From a virus, in the IMG/VR virus record IMGVR_UViG_3300042860_004908, positions 1-46,701 of that record: 46,701 bases of DNA; one strand, written 5' to 3'. The position numbers and the translations under genes are program-made. Under the pieces are notes generated by a model, which saw only the letters and a program-made list of their open reading frames with translations, made no database searches and was not told where the DNA came from. Positions 471-38,496 of the stretch are shown here, piece by piece (within the stretch, counting starts at the first letter, position 1; every line of letters begins with the position of its first letter).

Positions 471-519
471 GACCCCTCATGACGGACCATCTCAGATGAA
501 GGGGTCGTCTTTTTTTTTT
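471..519 (+). terminator. rho-independent terminator
   Basis: GACCCCTCAT pairs with ATGAAGGGGTC, with one bulged A, and a run of about ten T follows. The loop contains GGACCATCTCAGAT, the core of an intergenic repeat seen again near 2792, 3092 and 3512. What transcript it ends is unclear because no plus-strand gene precedes it in the window. Confidence 0.7.
484..509 (+). repeat. intergenic cassette repeat, copy 1
   Basis: GGACCATCTCAGAT followed by GGGGTCG. The same core recurs near 2792, 3092 and 3512, each time before a tagged gene. This copy is the only one with a T-run directly behind it. It shares the prefix TCATGAC with copy 2. Confidence 0.7.
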
Positions 520-546: not shown

Positions 547-1137
547 ATGAGTAAAATTATCAGATTGACTGAGTCAGATTTGATTAAATTAGTTAAACGT
601 GTCATTAGTGAACAAAGCGGAGGTAATCCAATAACATTTTCTAAAGTTGTTGATGTTCCGAATATGTCGAAAGACCAACTGTTTGACTTGATTATGGAAT
701 GGCTTACAACAGCCTATAAAAATATTTCATCCGTTATCCAATTATCGAATAAACAACAAGGTCTGATAGTTTTGAAGGGTGCTCACACCTGGTCTGCGCC
801 CAAAGGTTTTGGGGGGAGAGGTTGGGATGGTAGAATAACACACACAATAAAGCTACAGGTCAAAGATAATAAATTCAAAATTGATATGTTTGATTTATAT
901 CATGACTCAAGTGCCACATTGGGGGATAACTCCGCTATGGGAGGTATGCAGGTTGTTTTAGATTTGGGACTTTTGACCGATAGACCAACTTATGGTGACA
1001 AGCCAAGATATTCTTTATATCAAAATAAAGCTTGGCCTTTGTTGAAAGATAGTGCACAGAAAAACTTTGATGATTTTGTTACCTCCTTGACATCAGGAAT
1101 ACAAAACTTCAAAAAAGACGACGATTTTCAACCATAA
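547..1137 (+). CDS. tagged protein with DUF4468-like domain
   Basis: 196 residues. The N-terminus, MSKIIRLTESDLIKLVKRV followed by ISEQ, is the long basic form of the shared tag; I-S-E at about residue 22 would be the cleavage site. The body, about residues 28-190, begins VVDVPNMSKDQLFDLIMEWL and continues into a segment like the DUF4468 (TBP-like fold) domain common in Bacteroidota exported proteins; this family call is from memory of its pattern. No signal peptide or membrane helix is present. A phage box precedes it. Biochemical role unknown. Confidence 0.75.
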   Translation: MSKIIRLTESDLIKLVKRVISEQSGGNPITFSKVVDVPNMSKDQLFDLIMEWLTTAYKNISSVIQLSNKQQGLIVLKGAHTWSAPKGFGGRGWDGRITHTIKLQVKDNKFKIDMFDLYHDSSATLGDNSAMGGMQVVLDLGLLTDRPTYGDKPRYSLYQNKAWPLLKDSAQKNFDDFVTSLTSGIQNFKKDDDFQP

Positions 1138-2816: not shown

Positions 2817-2830
2817 ACTATTTATTGTTG

Positions 2831-3094
2831 ATGAAATATATTGTAACTGAACCACAACTTTCTGTTTTTTTGAGAAGAAGGGTTTCCCCTGAGGAACTTG
2901 AAGAGATGGTGAATCATACAAAAAAACAAATCGATGGTGGTGAAAAAGTTGGTTATGCCGTTAGAGAATCTATACGTTCGTTTTTGGACAAAACTCTTCC
3001 CGAAACCCACGATGTTGCAGAGTATTGGAATTATTATCATATGTTGGAAAAACCACTTGTTGCTTATATCAAGTTTCAGCTAGGTTTCAGGTGA
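2831..3094 (+). CDS. small tagged helical protein, RRR-type paralogue
   Basis: 87 residues. The ATG directly after TATTTATTGTTG is preferred over an upstream in-frame start that would run through the repeat. The tag MKYIVTEPQLSVFL leads straight into RRRVSPEELEEM; there is no clean (I/L)-x-E inside the tag itself. The body is predicted helical and charged, ending in KFQLGFR. The layout tag, then R-R-R, then (E)-E-x-L is shared with the genes at 3550 and 7868 and loosely with 3899 and 5602. Function unknown. The stop codon lies inside the next cassette repeat. Confidence 0.7.
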   Translation: MKYIVTEPQLSVFLRRRVSPEELEEMVNHTKKQIDGGEKVGYAVRESIRSFLDKTLPETHDVAEYWNYYHMLEKPLVAYIKFQLGFR

Positions 3095-3116
3095 CCATCT
3101 CAGATAATGGGGTCGT
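3092..3116 (+). repeat. intergenic cassette repeat, copy 3
   Basis: TGACCATCTCAGAT followed by GGGGTCGTG, then ATATTTATT, ATG and the tag. The TGA at its left edge is the stop codon of the preceding gene, so the repeat starts inside the coding region. Confidence 0.65.
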
Positions 3117-3130
3117 GATATTTATTTTTG

Positions 3131-3526
3131 ATGAAATATATTATTTCTGAAAACCAATACAATTTTCTTCTTGAGGGTCTTCACGACACGTCATGGCAGA
3201 ATGAAGAGGGTGATAAAATTACTCTTATTAATTTGTTGGATGCAACAAAAGACATCCCCGTTCAGGAACTATCTGTAAAGCAATTACAACCTCATCTTTT
3301 GACTTGGGATGGTAATGATGAGGAGATTACCAAAATTGAAAAGGCGGACTTAAAATACCCCATATTGATTTTCGTGAATGATGATGGTGAGTTCATAACA
3401 ATTATTGATGGACATCATAGAGCTCAAAAAGCAGTCAGAAAAGGTTTGGATACAATCAAAGCTAAAGTTATTACGCTTAGTTCTTTACCCAAGAAAATTA
3501 GAAAAGTATTTTCACATCTCAGATAA
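3131..3526 (+). CDS. tagged ParB/sulfiredoxin-like protein
   Basis: 131 residues. Tag MKYIISENQYNFLLEG with L-L-E at residues 13-15. The C-terminal half reads YPILIFVNDDGEFITIIDGH then HRAQKAVRKG, the strand-turn-helix with D-G-H-H-R that marks ParB/Srx-fold domains; the histidines and arginine would line the nucleotide/DNA phosphate site. The domain spans about residues 75-120. ParB-like folds include nucleases, CTPases and kinases, so the reaction is not fixed. The last residues (FSHLR and stop) are encoded by cassette copy 4. A shorter relative lies at 7088. Confidence 0.7.
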   Translation: MKYIISENQYNFLLEGLHDTSWQNEEGDKITLINLLDATKDIPVQELSVKQLQPHLLTWDGNDEEITKIEKADLKYPILIFVNDDGEFITIIDGHHRAQKAVRKGLDTIKAKVITLSSLPKKIRKVFSHLR

Positions 3527-3535
3527 AGGGGTAAG
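3512..3535 (+). repeat. intergenic cassette repeat, copy 4
   Basis: CACATCTCAGATAAAGGGGT followed by AAGAC, then TATTTATTGTTGATG. Its left part codes for the C-terminus and stop of the ParB-like protein, so the repeat straddles a gene end. Confidence 0.6.
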
Positions 3536-3549
3536 ACTATTTATTGTTG

Positions 3550-3876
3550 ATGAAATACGTTATCACAGAATCCCAATATAATTTTCTAAAAGAATCGTTT
3601 GTTCCAATCTCAATTAGAAGAAGAGCGAATGAAGAAACTCTGAAACAATATATAAGTTTGGGAGAAATGAATTACCCCACCCTTTGTGATGATTTCGGTG
3701 ATGCCTATGACTATGCCGATGCGGTTATTGATTATGGTCTCGATGAATTTCTTGGTGATGCTTTGGAGGACGAGGACTATTATAGTTATATAATGGATTA
3801 TCTTAGAACCTTATGTAGAGATTTATTTGGTCAATATCTGATTGACATCTATGAACAAACTTGTTCAGAGGAATAA
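3550..3876 (+). CDS. small strongly acidic tagged protein, RRR-type paralogue
   Basis: 108 residues. Tag MKYVITESQYNFLKES, then SIRRRANEETL, then an acidic helical body rich in Asp, Glu and Tyr (for example DEFLGDALEDEDYY). Apart from the R-R-R patch it has few basic residues. The same order (tag, R-R-R, acidic helices with an FADxV/YADAV motif) occurs in the protein at 7868; the two are probably paralogues. Acidity and small size would suit a DNA-mimic inhibitor delivered with phage DNA, but nothing in the sequence proves this. Confidence 0.7.
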   Translation: MKYVITESQYNFLKESFVPISIRRRANEETLKQYISLGEMNYPTLCDDFGDAYDYADAVIDYGLDEFLGDALEDEDYYSYIMDYLRTLCRDLFGQYLIDIYEQTCSEE

Positions 3877-3898
3877 ATGGTCGGACTATTTATTGTTG
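3873..3898 (+). repeat. intergenic cassette repeat, partial copy 5
   Basis: Only the right end remains: TGGTCGGAC followed by TATTTATTGTTG and the ATG. The hairpin half is missing because the preceding gene ends inside it. Confidence 0.5.
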
Positions 3899-4204
3899 AT
3901 GAAATATATCATTACAGAAAGACAACTCAAAAATTTGAGAGTAAGAAGAAATATTTTTGATGAATTACCAAAATATGTTACTTCTACATTTAAATGGTTA
4001 AATCCAAAAGCATTCAATAATTTTGATGAATTTATAGAAAGAGTTATTTTTTCTACAACGAGAGATTATGTTGGTGAATTTATAGACGGTCCCGAAGAAT
4101 TCGATGATTTAACAAATATGATTGAACCCACAGTTAGAGACATGGTGATGGGTCGATATTATGATGAGATTTTGGATTATTATAATAATCATTTCAAAAC
4201 CTAA
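3899..4204 (+). CDS. small tagged protein
   Basis: 101 residues. Tag MKYIITERQLKNLRVRRN; the glutamate expected at the tag end is absent and an R-V-R-R patch takes its place. The rest is predicted helical with alternating acidic and aromatic residues, ending LDYYNNHFKT. It probably belongs to the family of small helical proteins at 2831, 3550, 5602 and 7868, though similarity outside the tag is weak. The start is the ATG four bases after the phage box. Function unknown. Confidence 0.65.
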   Translation: MKYIITERQLKNLRVRRNIFDELPKYVTSTFKWLNPKAFNNFDEFIERVIFSTTRDYVGEFIDGPEEFDDLTNMIEPTVRDMVMGRYYDEILDYYNNHFKT

Positions 4205-4205
4205 C

Positions 4206-4213
4206 TATTTATT
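4206..4213 (+). promoter_or_regulatory. phage box TATTTATT before the LamG protein
   Basis: Three bases separate the box from the ATG, one of the shortest distances in the window. This gene is not tagged, so the box is not restricted to tagged genes. Confidence 0.5.
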
Positions 4214-4216
4214 GTT

Positions 4217-5236
4217 ATGCCAAATGTATTCAAATCAGGAAGCACTTCAACCAACGGGAGTATCTACAAAGGCCAATTTACAATTGGAGTTGACACAAGT
4301 AGGGATTTCGGGCCAACCTCAGCAACAAGTTTTTGGAATGGGATTGTGCCAGCAGCAAGTGGTTACACAATATATCAAAACAAAGCAGCAAATGGACCGA
4401 GCATCAGAACTGCTGCAAACGACTCGGCTTTAGTTAGTATTTTACAGAGTATGGGCTCGACAGGTTCGACAGCCGCAAACGTTTTGGATTGGGCTTCACA
4501 ACAATCAAGCATAATGGTTGCTAATATTGATTATCCAAGTATTAGAATGACAACCCAAATTCCCTACCAGACCATGTTATTAGATGCGGGTTATGTTTCT
4601 TCATATCCGAGACAAGGAACAACATGGAGAGATTTGGGCGGATTTAATCAAAATGGGACTTTGGTAAATGGACCGACATTTAGCTCCGTAGATGGAGGGA
4701 GTATTGTTTTTGATGGAACAAATGACTCAGTAACATTATCAACAACCCCTTTGAAACTTGGAACCGGTGCTTGGTCATTATCTTGTTGGTGGAAGGCAAA
4801 TGGTACTCAAGCCGACTTCTCATCGATTATGAGTCTCAATTTCGTTGCTAGTAATATCTCACAAGGTTCTTGGGCCTTCAAAGTCAAAAATGCTACCGCT
4901 CAAAACGTGTTTTCATTTTCATACGCTTCTGCACTAAACACCATTGTTGATGTTACAAGTTCTGCTGCGTGTAATGATGGAAACTGGCACAATCTCGTAA
5001 TTACAAGGAGCGGTACGTCCTGTATAATGTATATGGATGCGGTTAGCGTGGGAACCTTTACATTACCGAATAACTTCAATTTGACAGGGACTGCTAATGC
5101 AAACTTAGGATTTACTCCAAGAGATAATGCTTATATAAAAGGTAATGTTGCATTTTGTTCTATTAATGGTTTTGCTTTGACTGCGGAACAGGTGACCTCA
5201 AACTTTAACGCCCTCAAGGGTAGGTTCGGATTATAA
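4217..5236 (+). CDS. fibre/adhesin-like virion protein with C-terminal LamG domain
   Basis: 339 residues, no signal peptide. The N-terminal 110 residues (Y-K-G-Q-F-T-I-G, then FWNGIVPAASGYTIY) share a layout with the N-terminus of the 389-residue protein at 23047, which suggests a common virion-attachment part. From about residue 145 a concanavalin-A-like/LamG domain follows: GSIVFDGTNDSVTL, WSLSCWWKA, NWHNLVITRSG, then YIKGNVAFCSINGFALTAEQ, the typical strand order. Such domains bind glycans, so this may be a receptor-binding or decoration protein. It has its own phage box. Confidence 0.7.
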   Translation: MPNVFKSGSTSTNGSIYKGQFTIGVDTSRDFGPTSATSFWNGIVPAASGYTIYQNKAANGPSIRTAANDSALVSILQSMGSTGSTAANVLDWASQQSSIMVANIDYPSIRMTTQIPYQTMLLDAGYVSSYPRQGTTWRDLGGFNQNGTLVNGPTFSSVDGGSIVFDGTNDSVTLSTTPLKLGTGAWSLSCWWKANGTQADFSSIMSLNFVASNISQGSWAFKVKNATAQNVFSFSYASALNTIVDVTSSAACNDGNWHNLVITRSGTSCIMYMDAVSVGTFTLPNNFNLTGTANANLGFTPRDNAYIKGNVAFCSINGFALTAEQVTSNFNALKGRFGL

Positions 5237-5269
5237 AAATCAAATTTTATGTATAACGAGAGGAAATTT

Positions 5270-5506
5270 ATGATATTTAATGTTTCAGAGTTAGGAAATA
5301 TTGATTTCACACAAGTACAAGAAACATCCGTTGAAACTGTTAGAGTTTCTGTGGATGGAACTAAAACGTTTGTAAAGTGGGATGGAGAGGATATACCTAC
5401 GTCTGTAAACTCTTTAACAACGAAAGAAGGCCCTTATACCTATTCAGAGATTTTAGAAATACTTGCCACTCTAGAATGGACTGACCCTCTTTCATATAAC
5501 CAATAG
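5270..5506 (+). CDS. small conserved phage protein following the fibre gene
   Basis: 78 residues from the ATG giving MIFNVSELGNIDFTQVQ; an AGAGG stretch lies 6-11 bases before it, which is why I prefer it to an ATG seven codons upstream. The body, with VRVSVDGTKTFVKWDGE and EGPYTYSEILEILATLEWT, resembles small proteins encoded next to tail-fibre genes in other phages, a recollection I cannot check here. It may be a fibre chaperone or assembly factor. It lies 33 bases downstream of the LamG gene and has no box of its own. Confidence 0.6.
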   Translation: MIFNVSELGNIDFTQVQETSVETVRVSVDGTKTFVKWDGEDIPTSVNSLTTKEGPYTYSEILEILATLEWTDPLSYNQ

Positions 5507-5519
5507 TATATTAATCATC

Positions 5520-5555
5520 ATGAATTTGAATGAAAACATATCACGAGTAAAATAA
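5520..5555 (+). pseudogene. remnant of a tag sequence interrupted by TAA
   Basis: An ATG opens MNLNENISRVK and meets a TAA. Read through, the frame continues L-M-G-L, so the whole reads ENISRVK-stop-LMGL. This parallels the tag of the PPK2 gene at 37393 (EEIEKIKIVMGIS). After that the frame loses any likeness and ends 50 bases later inside the gene at 5602. I take it as the dead start of a lost tagged gene; it is very short and could be chance. Confidence 0.35.
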
Positions 5556-5601
5556 TTGATGGGTCTAACAATACAAATCTTTTTAAATTATAACAAGGTA
5601 A

Positions 5602-5859
5602 ATGAAAATTTTAATTACCGAAACACAAAAAACTTGGTTATTAAGAAGGCTGGGAGAAATCGATGATTATGTTGATTTGGCTTTGAGACGTGTTGACCCA
5701 CACGACTATACATTTCATGATTATATCGAAGAGATTGCTTGGCAAGTTGCGGATGAGTATGGAAATTTAAAGAAAGATGATATAGAAACAATTTTGGATT
5801 ATGTTCGTGAGAAATATTGGAAAATAATAGAATTACGTTATTTGAAACAAAACGATTAA
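5602..5859 (+). CDS. small tagged helical protein
   Basis: 85 residues. Tag MKILITETQKTWLLRRLGEI, with L-G-E and an arginine pair at the tag end. The remainder is helical and acidic with basic patches (WQVADEYGNLKKDDIETILD), ending RYLKQND. It groups with the small tagged proteins at 2831-3899 and 7868. No clear phage box precedes it (only TTTAAATTATAAC), which is unusual for a tagged gene. Function unknown. Confidence 0.65.
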   Translation: MKILITETQKTWLLRRLGEIDDYVDLALRRVDPHDYTFHDYIEEIAWQVADEYGNLKKDDIETILDYVREKYWKIIELRYLKQND

Positions 5860-5883
5860 ATGAATTCAGAAGGTATAATTCTC

Positions 5884-5892
5884 ATATTTATT
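5884..5892 (+). promoter_or_regulatory. phage box ATATTTATT
   Basis: Four bases before the ATG at 5897. The spacing and the following A-rich TAAG are typical of the set. Confidence 0.5.
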
Positions 5893-5896
5893 TAAG

Positions 5897-6403
5897 ATGA
5901 GATACATCATAACAGAATCACAATTAAAAAGGATAATCGAGCAAGACGATTGGGTGAGAAAGGCTGCATCAGGACCACAAAAGTGTGGTAAAGACGCCAA
6001 ATGGTGCGGTGATAATGAAGGTTCAAGTGACGGTGGGAAAGTTCGTAGAGAAAAAACCATGAGTCCGAGACAACAAGAAAAATATAACGAAACTGAATAT
6101 TGGAATAATCAACTTCTTGGGGATGTAACTGGGTTACCTGATTATTCTCAAAGAGTTGATGTAATTAAAAATCAAATAGGGTCTTTGTCCGGAAAATTAT
6201 CAATGGATGATAGAATCAAACTTGTTATCAATTTAACTAACAAATTGAACAAACCCTCACCATGGTGGTTTACTAACGCGGTGAAAAAAATGGTACAACC
6301 GAAGGGTGAAAAATTTACTGATAGTGATATTATAAAACTTGTGAATATGAAAGGTGGATTCGATGCATTCAAAAAGTATTATCTGTCGGATGTGATAATC
6401 TGA
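5897..6403 (+). CDS. tagged protein of unknown function
   Basis: 168 residues with one of the cleanest tags, MRYIITESQLKRIIEQDDW, where I-I-E precedes the glutamine. A short segment with two cysteines (KCGKDAKWCGDN) and a lysine/arginine-rich linker follow. From about residue 60 comes a helical domain with LPDYSQRVDVIKNQ, PSPWWFTNAVKKM and FDAFKKYYLSDVI. I do not recognise the family. It has its own phage box, with the next tagged gene 23 bases downstream. Confidence 0.75.
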   Translation: MRYIITESQLKRIIEQDDWVRKAASGPQKCGKDAKWCGDNEGSSDGGKVRREKTMSPRQQEKYNETEYWNNQLLGDVTGLPDYSQRVDVIKNQIGSLSGKLSMDDRIKLVINLTNKLNKPSPWWFTNAVKKMVQPKGEKFTDSDIIKLVNMKGGFDAFKKYYLSDVII

Positions 6404-6411
6404 TATTTATT
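6403..6411 (+). promoter_or_regulatory. phage box ATATTTATT overlapping the previous stop
   Basis: The box begins on the last base of the preceding stop codon and lies 15 bases before the ATG at 6427. Confidence 0.5.
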
Positions 6412-6426
6412 TTCAACCACCCTAAC

Positions 6427-7065
6427 ATGAAATATTTTATTACAGAGTCACAATTAAAGGTTTTACTTGAACAAAATCCATCAGTGAACTCTAATCAATC
6501 ACAAAGATGTGATGAATGGAAAAATAAAACGTTTGTTCAGGGAGATGGTGTAAATACTCCAAAAATCACTATAACAAAAACACCAAAACTAATTGAAGGT
6601 TTGTATGAAGGACCTGATAAAGGTGGATGTATACAAAGAGCAAGTAAGAATGATTACGATTCTCCTCATCAACTTGCGGGAATCACAGTATTTTATGAGG
6701 CGGCCCCCTATCTAAAAGAGCTTTATAAAAATGGGATTTTTGTAAAACCGGACATGGATAATATTTCCATGGAAAGAATAAGAAACAAAAAATTCAAAAT
6801 ATCAATTCCATTATTACCTACCACCGAAGATAAGGCGGTCACGAGTATAAATGAAAGAGGTGGTATGGGACACGAAGGAGATTTAACTGAAATTGATAAC
6901 ATTTTCAACAACCCCGACCACATTTACGTAACGAAAAAAAGATTGCAAGAAGGTGATATGACTGAAACGTTTGTAAGTTTCAGAAATATTAAAAATTTTC
7001 CCATCAAAACAACACAACAAAAAGCCGATAGATTTGCCTCAGAGAAAACAAAATTTGAGCCGTAA
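6427..7065 (+). CDS. tagged protein of unknown function
   Basis: 212 residues. Tag MKYFITESQLKVLLEQNPS with L-L-E-Q. The mature part holds two cysteines (RCDEW, GGCIQRAS) and a mixed alpha/beta body with ITVFYEAAPYLKELYKNGIF and a glycine-rich turn NERGGMGHEGDLTEI. Histidine and acidic residues in that turn could form an active site, but no known motif is evident. It has its own phage box and is followed by another tagged gene. Confidence 0.75.
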   Translation: MKYFITESQLKVLLEQNPSVNSNQSQRCDEWKNKTFVQGDGVNTPKITITKTPKLIEGLYEGPDKGGCIQRASKNDYDSPHQLAGITVFYEAAPYLKELYKNGIFVKPDMDNISMERIRNKKFKISIPLLPTTEDKAVTSINERGGMGHEGDLTEIDNIFNNPDHIYVTKKRLQEGDMTETFVSFRNIKNFPIKTTQQKADRFASEKTKFEP

Positions 7066-7087
7066 ATAAAAACAAAGTATTTAATTT

Positions 7088-7345
7088 ATGGAATACATTT
7101 TGACAGAGACACAATTACTTAGTATAATTGAAAACAATTCACCTGAAAAGGATAATACTGTGAAAATAACGGGTAAAATTTTAGACCCTACCAACATGAC
7201 TCCCGATGAAAAAGAGGAGTTTAAATTGAAGGAAAAGGTGGTTTTAGACAAGTCTGAGTTGGAGTATCCAATAGTTTTAGTTCAACTCAAAGATGGTAAG
7301 TATATTATCTTTGATGTAAATCATGGTATCGATTTAGATTCGTAA
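7088..7345 (+). CDS. short tagged ParB/Srx-like paralogue, probably truncated
   Basis: 85 residues. Tag MEYILTETQLLSIIENNSP with I-I-E. The C-terminal part, SELEYPIVLVQLKDGKYIIF then DVNHG, aligns with ADLKYPILIFVNDDGEFITI then IDGHH of the protein at 3131. It stops right after the histidine, so the helix carrying the conserved arginine is missing. Either it is decaying or the stub has kept another role. A weaker box, TATTTAATT, lies just before the ATG. Confidence 0.65.
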   Translation: MEYILTETQLLSIIENNSPEKDNTVKITGKILDPTNMTPDEKEEFKLKEKVVLDKSELEYPIVLVQLKDGKYIIFDVNHGIDLDS

Positions 7346-7349
7346 TTCT

Positions 7350-7670
7350 ATGGAGGGATTCGAAAGATTTTTGGAAATGTTGAATTTAGTTTACTATGTG
7401 GACTATTCTACTATGGGTATAAATAACAAGGGTATACCTTGGTGTTGTATAAAAGTTTCAGTTTATCAAGATAAAAAGCCTCAGTATTTACAACATCATT
7501 GTTATGAAAAAAATGGTAAGTTTGCAATATATTCCGAAGGAAACCAAGAGATGGGAGTAAACGAGGGTAAATTGAAAATTTGGGGTGATGACCTAGCTGT
7601 GGACAATTATTTTGAAAAATTAGCAAGAACTTTAGCAAAAGAACATTTCTATGATATCAACGAAGAATAA
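7350..7670 (+). CDS. small protein of unknown function
   Basis: 106 residues, untagged, four bases after the preceding stop and with no box, so probably co-transcribed. The sequence has many aromatic and cysteine residues (YYVDYSTMGINNKGIPWCCI, HHCYEKNG) and looks like a single alpha/beta domain. The C-terminal helix NYFEKLARTLAKEHF is amphipathic. I recognise no family. The next frame overlaps its end by 20 bases. Confidence 0.55.
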   Translation: MEGFERFLEMLNLVYYVDYSTMGINNKGIPWCCIKVSVYQDKKPQYLQHHCYEKNGKFAIYSEGNQEMGVNEGKLKIWGDDLAVDNYFEKLARTLAKEHFYDINEE

Positions 7671-7842
7671 AAAAATTATAGAAGGTTTAATATCTCGTAA
7701 TAGAGAAGATAATTTTACTTTCACTGAAGAAGACTTGTTGAGGGTATATAGGGCAACAGGTATACCAGAAAGTAAATTTTTTATAGATTATTATTTGAGA
7801 GGAATTGAAAATCTAACCAACAGAACTATCCACATAATCTAA
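7651..7842 (+). CDS. small protein of unknown function
   Basis: 63 residues starting inside the end of the preceding gene in another frame. It is basic at the start (MISTKNKKIIEGLISRNRED) and then resembles a helix-turn-helix arrangement (FTEEDLLRVYRATGIPESKF). A small DNA-binding role is conceivable but not supported by a recognised motif. Translational coupling through the overlap is likely. Confidence 0.45.
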   Translation: MISTKNKKIIEGLISRNREDNFTFTEEDLLRVYRATGIPESKFFIDYYLRGIENLTNRTIHII

Positions 7843-7851
7843 TTTTTTCTG

Positions 7852-7862
7852 ATATATTTATT
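7852..7862 (+). promoter_or_regulatory. phage box ATATATTTATT
   Basis: Full-length box, five bases before the ATG at 7868. Confidence 0.5.
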
Positions 7863-7867
7863 TTATT

Positions 7868-8218
7868 ATGAAATATATCATTACAGAAGAACAACTAAAA
7901 AGTTTATCTGAGCAAAAAATACCCAGGTCCCTCAGGAGACGATTGACGGAAGATAATCTAAGAAAACACGTTGAAAGGGCGATAGAAGATGAAGGGGAGG
8001 ATTTTTGTGAAATTTACGACGATGGTTTTGAATTTGCAGATGAAGTAATTTCCAACGCGGTTGAGTCCTTTTTACAAGACGAGGAAAACGTTTCAGACTT
8101 AGATTTCAACATTGACAACGAAATTGATTATATGTTAAAAGATGTAATTAAAGAAATGTTCAGTGAGGAAATTTTTGACAGATACGTTGAGGTCTGTGGA
8201 AATGAATGGATGTCCTAA
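7868..8218 (+). CDS. small strongly acidic tagged protein, RRR-type paralogue
   Basis: 116 residues. Tag MKYIITEEQLKSLSEQKIP with L-S-E-Q, then RSLRRRLTEDNLRKH and a very acidic helical body (EDEGEDFCEIYDDGFEFADE, LQDEENVSDLDF). It parallels the protein at 3550 in the R-R-R patch, the E-x-L helix start, a CxxxxDDGFEFADEV / CDDFGDAYDYADAV motif and a C-terminal FxRYVEVC / YLIDIYEQTC motif. This pair is the clearest paralogous payload in the tagged set. Function unknown; DNA mimicry is one idea. Confidence 0.75.
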   Translation: MKYIITEEQLKSLSEQKIPRSLRRRLTEDNLRKHVERAIEDEGEDFCEIYDDGFEFADEVISNAVESFLQDEENVSDLDFNIDNEIDYMLKDVIKEMFSEEIFDRYVEVCGNEWMS

Positions 8219-37392: not shown

Positions 37393-38496
37393 GTGCTAAT
37401 TCACGAGGAAATTGAAAAAATAAAAATTGTAATGGGGATTTCTGAAGCAAAAAAAACTTCAAACGATGCCCCTTTTATGAACGTCAATCTAAGAAAAGTT
37501 GTTGATACTCTAACCTTTCTGAAACTCTACAACAAAAAAATAGAAAATTTACTTTGGAAAATATCTAAATTGTCGGAGGACCGAATTATCGATTTTGAGA
37601 TGGTGGATAGAGGTTTAAGAAAAATTCTTCTCAAAAAAGGGGATAAAAAAAAGAATATTGAAGAATATTTCAGAAACATCCTTATCTCTTTGAAATTCAG
37701 AGAAAGAGGTGGTTATGGGGTCGAACCTGAAAGTGAAGATTATGAATTTGAACCCGAGGAACCGTCAATTTTACCTAAAAAGGTTTATAAGAAGGAATTA
37801 TATTTTCTACAAATTGAACTAGTGAAGATGCAGGAATGGTTGAGAAAAACGGGAAAAACTGTGATTATAGTTTTCGAGGGTAGAGATTCTGCGGGTAAGG
37901 GTTCCACAATCAAAAAATTTACAGAAAATTTAAATCCAAGATACTATAATGTAATTGCTTTAGGTATACCCAACCCCGAAGAAAGGAAAAATTGGTGGAA
38001 TAGATACCGAGACAAAATCAAACCAGGAATGATAAATTTCCTCGACAGAAGTTGGTATAATAGAGGTTTAGTCGAGCCTGTTATGGGATATGGTACCCCT
38101 GAAGAATATGAAGATTTCATGGAGAACGTTGAGGATTTCGAGAACGATTTGGTAAAAGAAGGAGATTATCTCTTTAAACTATGGTTTTCAATTGATAAAG
38201 AAACTCAAAAAAGAAGATTTCAGATGAGACAACAGTCTCCATTAAAATATTGGAAGTATTCCCCTAATGACGCTCAAATGCAAGATTTATGGGACAGATT
38301 CACAGAATTCAAAGAAAAATTGTTTGATAAAACTTCAACAGTAAATCACCCGTGGGTAATTATTGATTCACAAGATAAAAGAATCTCAGGGTTGAATTCA
38401 ATAAGATATGTTTTACAGAACATACCATATGAAGGTAAAAACGAAAAAGTTTTAGAGGGAGTTTATCCTGAAGTTTTAGCCGTTTTGAGGCCTTAA
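37393..38496 (+). CDS. ppk2: tagged polyphosphate kinase 2 (PPK2)-family protein
   Basis: 367 residues from a GTG after the box; no other start fits. Residues 1-20, LIHEEIEKIKIVMGISEAKK, are a tag (I-S-E-A). About 110 residues of charged helix follow. The PPK2 domain begins near residue 135: VIIVFEGRDSAGKGSTIKKF is the Walker A loop, LNPRYYNVIALGIPNPEERK and NWWNRYRDKIKPGMINFLDR follow, with SWYNRGLVEPVMGY as the lid/Walker B region and DAQMQDLWDRFTEFKEKLFD. PPK2 enzymes transfer phosphate between polyphosphate and nucleotides. The extra N-terminus means it could travel in the virion and supply nucleotides on entry. Related to known PPK2 throughout the core; the role is inferred. Confidence 0.93.
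   Translation: MLIHEEIEKIKIVMGISEAKKTSNDAPFMNVNLRKVVDTLTFLKLYNKKIENLLWKISKLSEDRIIDFEMVDRGLRKILLKKGDKKKNIEEYFRNILISLKFRERGGYGVEPESEDYEFEPEEPSILPKKVYKKELYFLQIELVKMQEWLRKTGKTVIIVFEGRDSAGKGSTIKKFTENLNPRYYNVIALGIPNPEERKNWWNRYRDKIKPGMINFLDRSWYNRGLVEPVMGYGTPEEYEDFMENVEDFENDLVKEGDYLFKLWFSIDKETQKRRFQMRQQSPLKYWKYSPNDAQMQDLWDRFTEFKEKLFDKTSTVNHPWVIIDSQDKRISGLNSIRYVLQNIPYEGKNEKVLEGVYPEVLAVLRP

What the first reader, a model, noticed from the sequence alone, without database searches (positions are those of the whole stretch)
2831..8218. Family of tiny tagged acidic proteins with an R-R-R patch after the tag; possible DNA mimics
Proteins at 3550 and 7868 share tag, R-R-R, and an acidic helical body with similar F/YADxV and C-terminal cysteine motifs; 2831, 3899 and 5602 share the layout loosely. 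Acidic ejected proteins that mimic DNA or block restriction, like T4 IPI, would be a natural cargo. The family expanded within 5 kb.
Basis: partly seen in the sequence, partly recalled or inferred. Interest (0 to 1): 0.6.

Follow-up and report, generated by a model that had tools for sequence, protein, structure and literature searches.

The report
Phage-packaged acidic helical protein family
A phage, probably a giant relative of T4 that infects Bacteroidota, carries five related small proteins that look tagged for packing into the virus head and delivery into the cell; the family is real and previously undescribed, but nothing shows that its members imitate DNA.

Summary
The proteins at 3550 and 7868 are true paralogs (32% identity, E 2e-17): tag, Arg-Arg-Arg, acidic helical body, [FY]ADxVI, two cysteines. 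3899 is a secure remote member (blind profile E about 3e-6), 5602 probable (E 5e-4 to 2e-3), 2831 borderline (E about 0.01). I found about 30 further domains, only in uncultured phage contigs, including 304-321 kb T4-type phages with a gp21-type protease, gp23-type capsid protein and bS21. They are absent from 50,697 deposited phage records and from Pfam, PHROGs, NCBIfam and the PDB.

The Arg patch nearly always lies 5-9 residues after an [LIV]xE site of the T4 protease type, also inside multidomain ORFs. This fits a cleaved capsid-targeting peptide. The mature domain is predicted all-helical (pLDDT 87-88). Two cysteines co-occur perfectly (22 both, 9 neither, 0 single).

DNA mimicry is not supported: mature net charge runs from 0 to -22, the conserved residues are the Arg patch and hydrophobic core, and no DNA mimic appears among fold matches. 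T4 IPI is not reported to be a DNA mimic. Best reading: T4-like injected cargo, a new family, target unknown, most likely host takeover or anti-defence. The paralogs are old, not a recent 5-kb expansion.

The parts
3550..3876 (+). Core member 1 (108 aa, net -16): tag + RRR + helical domain with [DE][FY]ADxVI and two conserved Cys
   Evidence: AF2 model pLDDT 86.6
7868..8218 (+). Core member 2 (116 aa, net -20): same architecture; most acidic gene in the window
   Evidence: AF2 model of the mature part pLDDT 87.6
3899..4204 (+). Remote member (101 aa, net -4), patch RVRR joined directly to the tag, no Cys; nearest relative is a C-terminal domain in L076
   Evidence: blind profile E 2.7e-6, tree support 96/89
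5602..5859 (+). Probable remote member (85 aa, net -6), patch LLRR joined directly to the tag
   Evidence: blind profile E 5e-4 to 1.6e-3
2831..3094 (+). Borderline member (87 aa, net 0), patch FLRRR joined directly to the tag; has a relative in L050 (738-1010)
   Evidence: blind profile E 0.0085-0.015; relative E 6.5e-10
3550..3594 (+). Tag MKYVITESQYNFLKE of 3550; candidate cleavage after E7 (ITE/S) or E15 (LKE/S)
   Evidence: sequence; spacing test
7868..7912 (+). Tag MKYIITEEQLKSLSE of 7868; candidate cleavage after E7 (ITE/E) or E15 (LSE/Q)
   Evidence: sequence; spacing test
3616..3624 (+). Arg23-Arg24-Arg25 codons of 3550
   Evidence: columns 90/100/97% basic in 31 aligned domains
7934..7942 (+). 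Arg23-Arg24-Arg25 codons of 7868
3685..3687 (+). Mid-body Cys46 codon of 3550
   Evidence: co-occurs with the C-terminal Cys: 22 both, 9 neither, 0 single
3862..3864 (+). C-terminal Cys105 codon of 3550
8006..8008 (+). Mid-body Cys47 codon of 7868
8195..8197 (+). C-terminal Cys110 codon of 7868
2818..2838 (+). Copied leader plus tag start CTATTTATTGTTGATGAAATA (also identical at 3537-3557 and 3886-3906; 2 mismatches at 3118)

Best explanation
The five ORFs encode diverged copies of one small all-helical domain that is cargo of a T4-type jumbo phage head. The N-terminal tag (MKYxITExQ...) acts as a capsid-targeting peptide that recruits the protein into the prohead core. The gp21-type prohead protease then cuts after an [LIV]xE glutamate, leaving a mature domain that begins 5-9 residues before the Arg-Arg-Arg patch. 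The small domain leaves with the DNA at infection and acts early in the host by binding a specific host target, most likely a defence or takeover target, as T4 internal proteins do. The invariant Arg (R24) and its neighbours are probably structural or part of the binding site, and the two linked cysteines probably form a disulfide or a metal pair. Shown here: homology, conservation, cysteine linkage, confident helical fold, protease and capsid genes in relatives, site-to-patch spacing. Inferred: packaging, cleavage, ejection. Guessed: the target.
For: Homologous family across phages. Records carrying it encode Peptidase_S77 (E about 1e-22, 5 of 18) and Gp23 (E about 1e-62 or better, 4 of 19). 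In two of them gp23 has a prosequence with an LINE/A site of the same type as the tags. [LIVMF]xE lies 5-9 residues before the patch in 25 of 31 domains against 7.1 expected. That includes the four domains deep inside multidomain ORFs (L046, L076, L080 twice). When the tag has no E15, E7 (ITE) sits at nearly the same distance before the patch. Cys pair 22 both / 9 neither / 0 single, with about 4 changes on the tree. Two concordant AF2 models. Literature: T4 capsid-targeting sequences, gp21 cleavage logo, different cargoes sharing one tag (PMC9026906); Ip1-Ip3 each inhibit one GmrSD type (PMC12373910).
Against: No head gene is seen in the window itself or in its near-identical 65-kb neighbour record. 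The sub-family L007/L040/L071/L075 has no site near the patch, and L047 and L025 members start without any tag, so not every copy need be packaged. T4 internal proteins are described as basic, whereas 3550 and 7868 are acidic. No virion proteomics of these phages was found. The internal-site evidence alone is modest (four cases, roughly p 0.01). The Cys and charge statistics are not fully corrected for relatedness.
Confidence: 0.6

Rival explanations
1. DNA mimics: the acidic helical body imitates the DNA phosphate backbone and blocks restriction enzymes or other DNA-binding defence proteins soon after entry.
For: 7868 has an Ocr-like acidic content (33/116 against Ocr 34/116); nearly all mature domains are net negative; all-helical fold; T4 internal proteins are anti-restriction factors.
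Against: Mature net charge 0 to -22 and acidic fraction 0.17-0.37 across the family; surface acidic positions drift while core and Arg patch are fixed; a basic patch is the most conserved feature; no Ocr, ArdA or other DNA mimic among fold matches shown.
Confidence: 0.1
2. Head morphogenesis or DNA-packing protein: the tag places it in the core and the Arg patch binds gp22-like scaffold or packaged DNA; it has no role in the new host.
For: T4 IPIII loss slows head assembly (PMC9026906); the Arg patch is the most conserved part; several copies per phage.
Against: Copy number and sequence differ strongly between phages and one domain occurs next to unrelated domains in multidomain ORFs, more like interchangeable cargo than a core structural part; T4 internal proteins touch DNA through lysines (PMC3012670) and these bodies are acidic.
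Confidence: 0.2
3. Intracellular early or late regulator unrelated to the capsid, whose tag is a leftover or has another function, for example a regulatory or localisation peptide.
For: Two members lack a tag (L047, L025); one sub-family lacks a site close to the patch.
Against: The same tag types head on the order of a hundred otherwise different ORFs in these loci, and tags and internal junctions both carry [LIV]xE sites at a set distance.
Confidence: 0.1

Closest known systems
T4 internal proteins IPI/IPII/IPIII (Ip1-Ip3) with capsid-targeting sequences
   Same: Short shared N-terminal peptide with [LI]xE-type site on otherwise different small proteins; gp21-type protease and gp23 capsid in relatives; several copies in variable loci; small mature domain
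   Different: No sequence or fold similarity found; acidic rather than basic; all-helical whereas IPI* is mixed helix/sheet; domain also occurs in tandem or multidomain ORFs; packaging and function untested
T7 Ocr and other DNA-mimic anti-restriction proteins (ArdA)
   Same: Small, helical; 7868 has a similar share of Asp and Glu
   Different: Acidity not conserved in the family; invariant Arg patch and linked Cys pair; no fold match; no activity data
bS21-encoding freshwater Bacteroidetes phages (PMC9723584)
   Same: Relatives that carry the family have bS21 on the opposite strand beside the prohead protease, the arrangement that paper describes; similar genome size
   Different: That paper's abstract and the passages read here do not describe this protein family or the tags; the window fragment itself does not cover that region

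Membership tests
T4-type CTS-bearing internal (ejected) proteins | Conserved N-terminal peptide shared by otherwise unrelated proteins | tested here: met
   the same tag types head 115 non-redundant ORFs, most with different bodies
T4-type CTS-bearing internal (ejected) proteins | gp21-type (S77) prohead protease and gp23-type capsid encoded by the phage | tested here: met
   Met in relatives G001, G002, G003, G008 (protease also G016); not seen in the window fragment or G007
T4-type CTS-bearing internal (ejected) proteins | [LI]xE cleavage site at the end of the peptide | tested here: met
   25 of 31 domains have the motif 5-9 residues before the Arg patch, 7.1 expected; actual cleavage not shown
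T4-type CTS-bearing internal (ejected) proteins | Present in the virion, cleaved, injected | not testable with these tools
   needs virion proteomics
T4-type CTS-bearing internal (ejected) proteins | Homology of the mature part to a T4 internal protein | tested here: not met
   No PHROGs, Pfam, NCBIfam or PDB match and no tblastn hit in deposited phages; not a required feature, since the T4 internal proteins differ from one another in their mature regions
DNA-mimic anti-restriction proteins (Ocr, ArdA) | Strong, conserved surface acidity | tested here: not met
   Met by 7868 alone, not by the family: mature net charge 0 to -22, acidic columns not conserved
DNA-mimic anti-restriction proteins (Ocr, ArdA) | Fold like a known DNA mimic | tested here: not met
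   Foldseek against PDB: best E 1.3 and 6.7, none a DNA mimic among rows shown
DNA-mimic anti-restriction proteins (Ocr, ArdA) | Carboxylate spacing that matches B-DNA phosphates | not testable with these tools
DNA-mimic anti-restriction proteins (Ocr, ArdA) | Competes with DNA for a restriction or defence enzyme | not testable with these tools
   needs an assay
bS21-encoding Bacteroidetes jumbo phages | bS21 opposite in strand to and beside prohead protease/MCP | tested here: inconclusive
   Met in the relatives G001, G002, G003, G008, G016; the window fragment does not cover this region

The most novel reading that the evidence does not exclude
A new fold family of virion-delivered anti-defence domains, used both as single genes and as modules inside multidomain precursors that the prohead protease would cut inside the head, with the most acidic members acting as injected DNA mimics.
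Probability: 0.1. Interest if true: 0.75.

Novelty: new variant of a known kind. Interest (0 to 1): 0.45.

Why it matters
T4 internal proteins are known mainly from T4 and its close relatives. If this reading is right, uncultured Bacteroidota jumbo phages use the same delivery route with an unknown set of cargoes, including this helical family and multidomain precursors. The regular distance from [LIV]xE to the Arg patch predicts the mature N-terminus of dozens of unknown proteins, which one virion proteomics experiment can test. It also gives a defined list of small domains to screen against bacterial defence systems.

Tried and rejected
DNA mimicry as the default reading: rejected as unsupported, not excluded. 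Known families: Pfam, PHROGs, NCBIfam and PDB sequence searches gave only scattered weak hits to single members. Deposited phages: no tblastn match. Bacterial and archaeal genomes: 20 tag-pattern matches, none a relative; a body-only profile was too variable to scan with. Fold search: Bcl-2-like and other rows had E above 1 and TM at most about 0.4, taken as chance. Recent local expansion: rejected by the tree. A TATTTAT element as a late promoter: 60 of 114 tagged genes have it, mostly 10-13 nt before the ATG, against 36% of other ORFs (p 0.003); suggestive only in such AT-rich DNA. Literature search for the tag string found nothing.

Full report
WHAT IS THERE. The window is an IMG/VR virus record of 46.7 kb. 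The proteins at 3550 (108 aa) and 7868 (116 aa) align over their whole length, 32% identity, E 2e-17 for the pair. Shared features are Arg23-24-25, the [DE][FY]ADxVI motif and two cysteines. They rank third and first in negative charge per residue among 59 window genes.

THE LOOSER THREE. With a profile of the body only (tag excluded) and the test protein left out, 3899 scores E 3e-9 (2.7e-6 if its closest relative is also removed), 5602 scores 5e-4 to 1.6e-3, and 2831 scores 0.0085 to 0.015. An unrelated tagged control (3131) scores above 500. 3899 is therefore a member, 5602 a probable one and 2831 borderline; 2831 also has a relative in L050. In these three the Arg patch is joined directly to the tag.

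RELATIVES. Searches of viral contigs gave homologs in contigs up to 321 kb. Iterative profiles gave about 30 domains, aligned as A4 (31 domains). Counts per record include partial, tag-only matches, but several records hold more than one full domain. None was found in 50,697 deposited phage records. In bacterial and archaeal genomes the tag pattern matched 20 places, none a relative. No known protein family or PDB sequence matches.

CONSERVATION. In A4, position 24 is Arg in all 31 domains, 25 is basic in 97% and 23 in 90%. Conserved hydrophobic positions define a helical core; body acidic columns above 80% are only three (reference positions 54, 79, 91). The mid-body and C-terminal cysteines are both present in 22 domains, both absent in 9 and never single (Fisher p 5e-8, relatedness not corrected). 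The tree needs about four changes of this state, at least two of them forced by well-supported branches. A disulfide or shared metal site is the simple reading; it is inferred, not shown.

STRUCTURE. AlphaFold2 on 3550 with A4: mean pLDDT 86.6, pTM 0.78, five helices after the tag helix. On the mature part of 7868 with A5: pLDDT 87.6, pTM 0.80, the same helix order. Foldseek found nothing significant in the PDB (best E 1.3 and 6.7) or in BFVD (best 2.6). Either the fold is new or it is too small and simple to be recognised.

THE TAG AND DELIVERY. Records with this family encode a gp21-type protease (Peptidase_S77, E about 1e-22, 5 of 18 records) and a gp23-type capsid protein (E about 1e-62 to 1e-64, 4 of 19). 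In two of them the gp23 prosequence contains LINE/A, the same type of site as in the tags. An [LIVMF]xE motif ends 5-9 residues before the Arg patch in 25 of 31 domains against 7.1 expected. This holds for domains behind different tag types and for four domains deep inside longer ORFs (L046, L076, L080 twice). For members whose patch is joined to the tag, the ITE site at E7 gives nearly the same distance. Exceptions: the L007/L040/L071/L075 sub-family and two members without a tag (L047, L025). In T4, such peptides target proteins to the prohead and are removed by gp21; the mature parts differ between proteins (PMC9026906). Ip1, Ip2 and Ip3 each inhibit a different GmrSD restriction system (PMC12373910). 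That is the best model for what this family does; packaging, cleavage and target are inferred.

WHICH PHAGES. In the five records with the S77 protease, a bS21 gene lies beside it on the opposite strand, the arrangement reported for freshwater Bacteroidetes phages of up to 331 kb (PMC9723584). The window fragment and its near-identical 65-kb neighbour do not cover the head genes, so this is by relationship only.

THE DNA-MIMIC IDEA. For: 7868 has 33 acidic residues in 116, close to Ocr's 34 in 116 (PMC2806950), and nearly every mature domain is net negative. Against: the range is 0 to -22, acidic surface positions are not conserved, a basic patch is, and no DNA mimic appears in the fold searches. 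I give mimicry about 0.1.

HISTORY. The five copies are not a recent burst. 3550 pairs with a domain of another phage at 62% identity (support 100/99), 3899 with another (96/89), and 7868 sits on a long branch. Recent copying is seen only in the leader and tag start, an identical 21-mer at 2818, 3537 and 3886.

VERDICT. Observation confirmed with the limits above; interpretation partly supported: cargo likely, DNA mimic not supported. New family within a known kind of system, with a multidomain variant that deserves a test.

Noticed in passing
window 3131-3526 (+): Tagged 131-aa protein with an IIDGHHRA stretch that recalls ParB/GmrS-type DGxxR motifs; GmrS-like proteins are targets of T4 internal proteins, so a decoy is conceivable. 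No Pfam match above cut-off.
   Followed up: partly
window 37393-38496 (+): Polyphosphate kinase 2 (PF03976, E 6e-71) whose N-terminus MLIHEEIEKIKIVMGISE resembles a second tag type (MNLQENIxRIKEMMGxxE) seen in relatives: an enzyme possibly packaged in the head.
   Followed up: partly
L076, L080, L046, L028, L040: Tagged multidomain ORFs in which this domain is one of several, in L076, L080 and L046 lying directly behind an [LIV]xE site; they look like precursors cut into several cargoes.
   Followed up: partly
window 487-506, 2795-2814, 3095-3114 (+): Repeated intergenic element CCATCTCAGAN4GGGGTC, 0 expected by chance; with GACC upstream it could form a hairpin. Function unknown.
   Followed up: no
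upstream of 2831, 3550, 3899, 7868 and many tagged genes in related loci: TATTTA(T/A) mostly 10-13 nt before the ATG of tagged genes, also further upstream of portal, gp21 and gp22 genes in relatives; possible late promoter.
   Followed up: partly
L073 and L081: C-terminal module E(I/L)TE-RCW(K/A)GYTQKGMKTMFGKRYPNCVKKKK, nearly identical behind two different members of this family.
   Followed up: no
window 547-1137 (+): Tagged protein with DUF4468 (E 5e-15), a domain of unknown function with a TBP-like fold.
   Followed up: no
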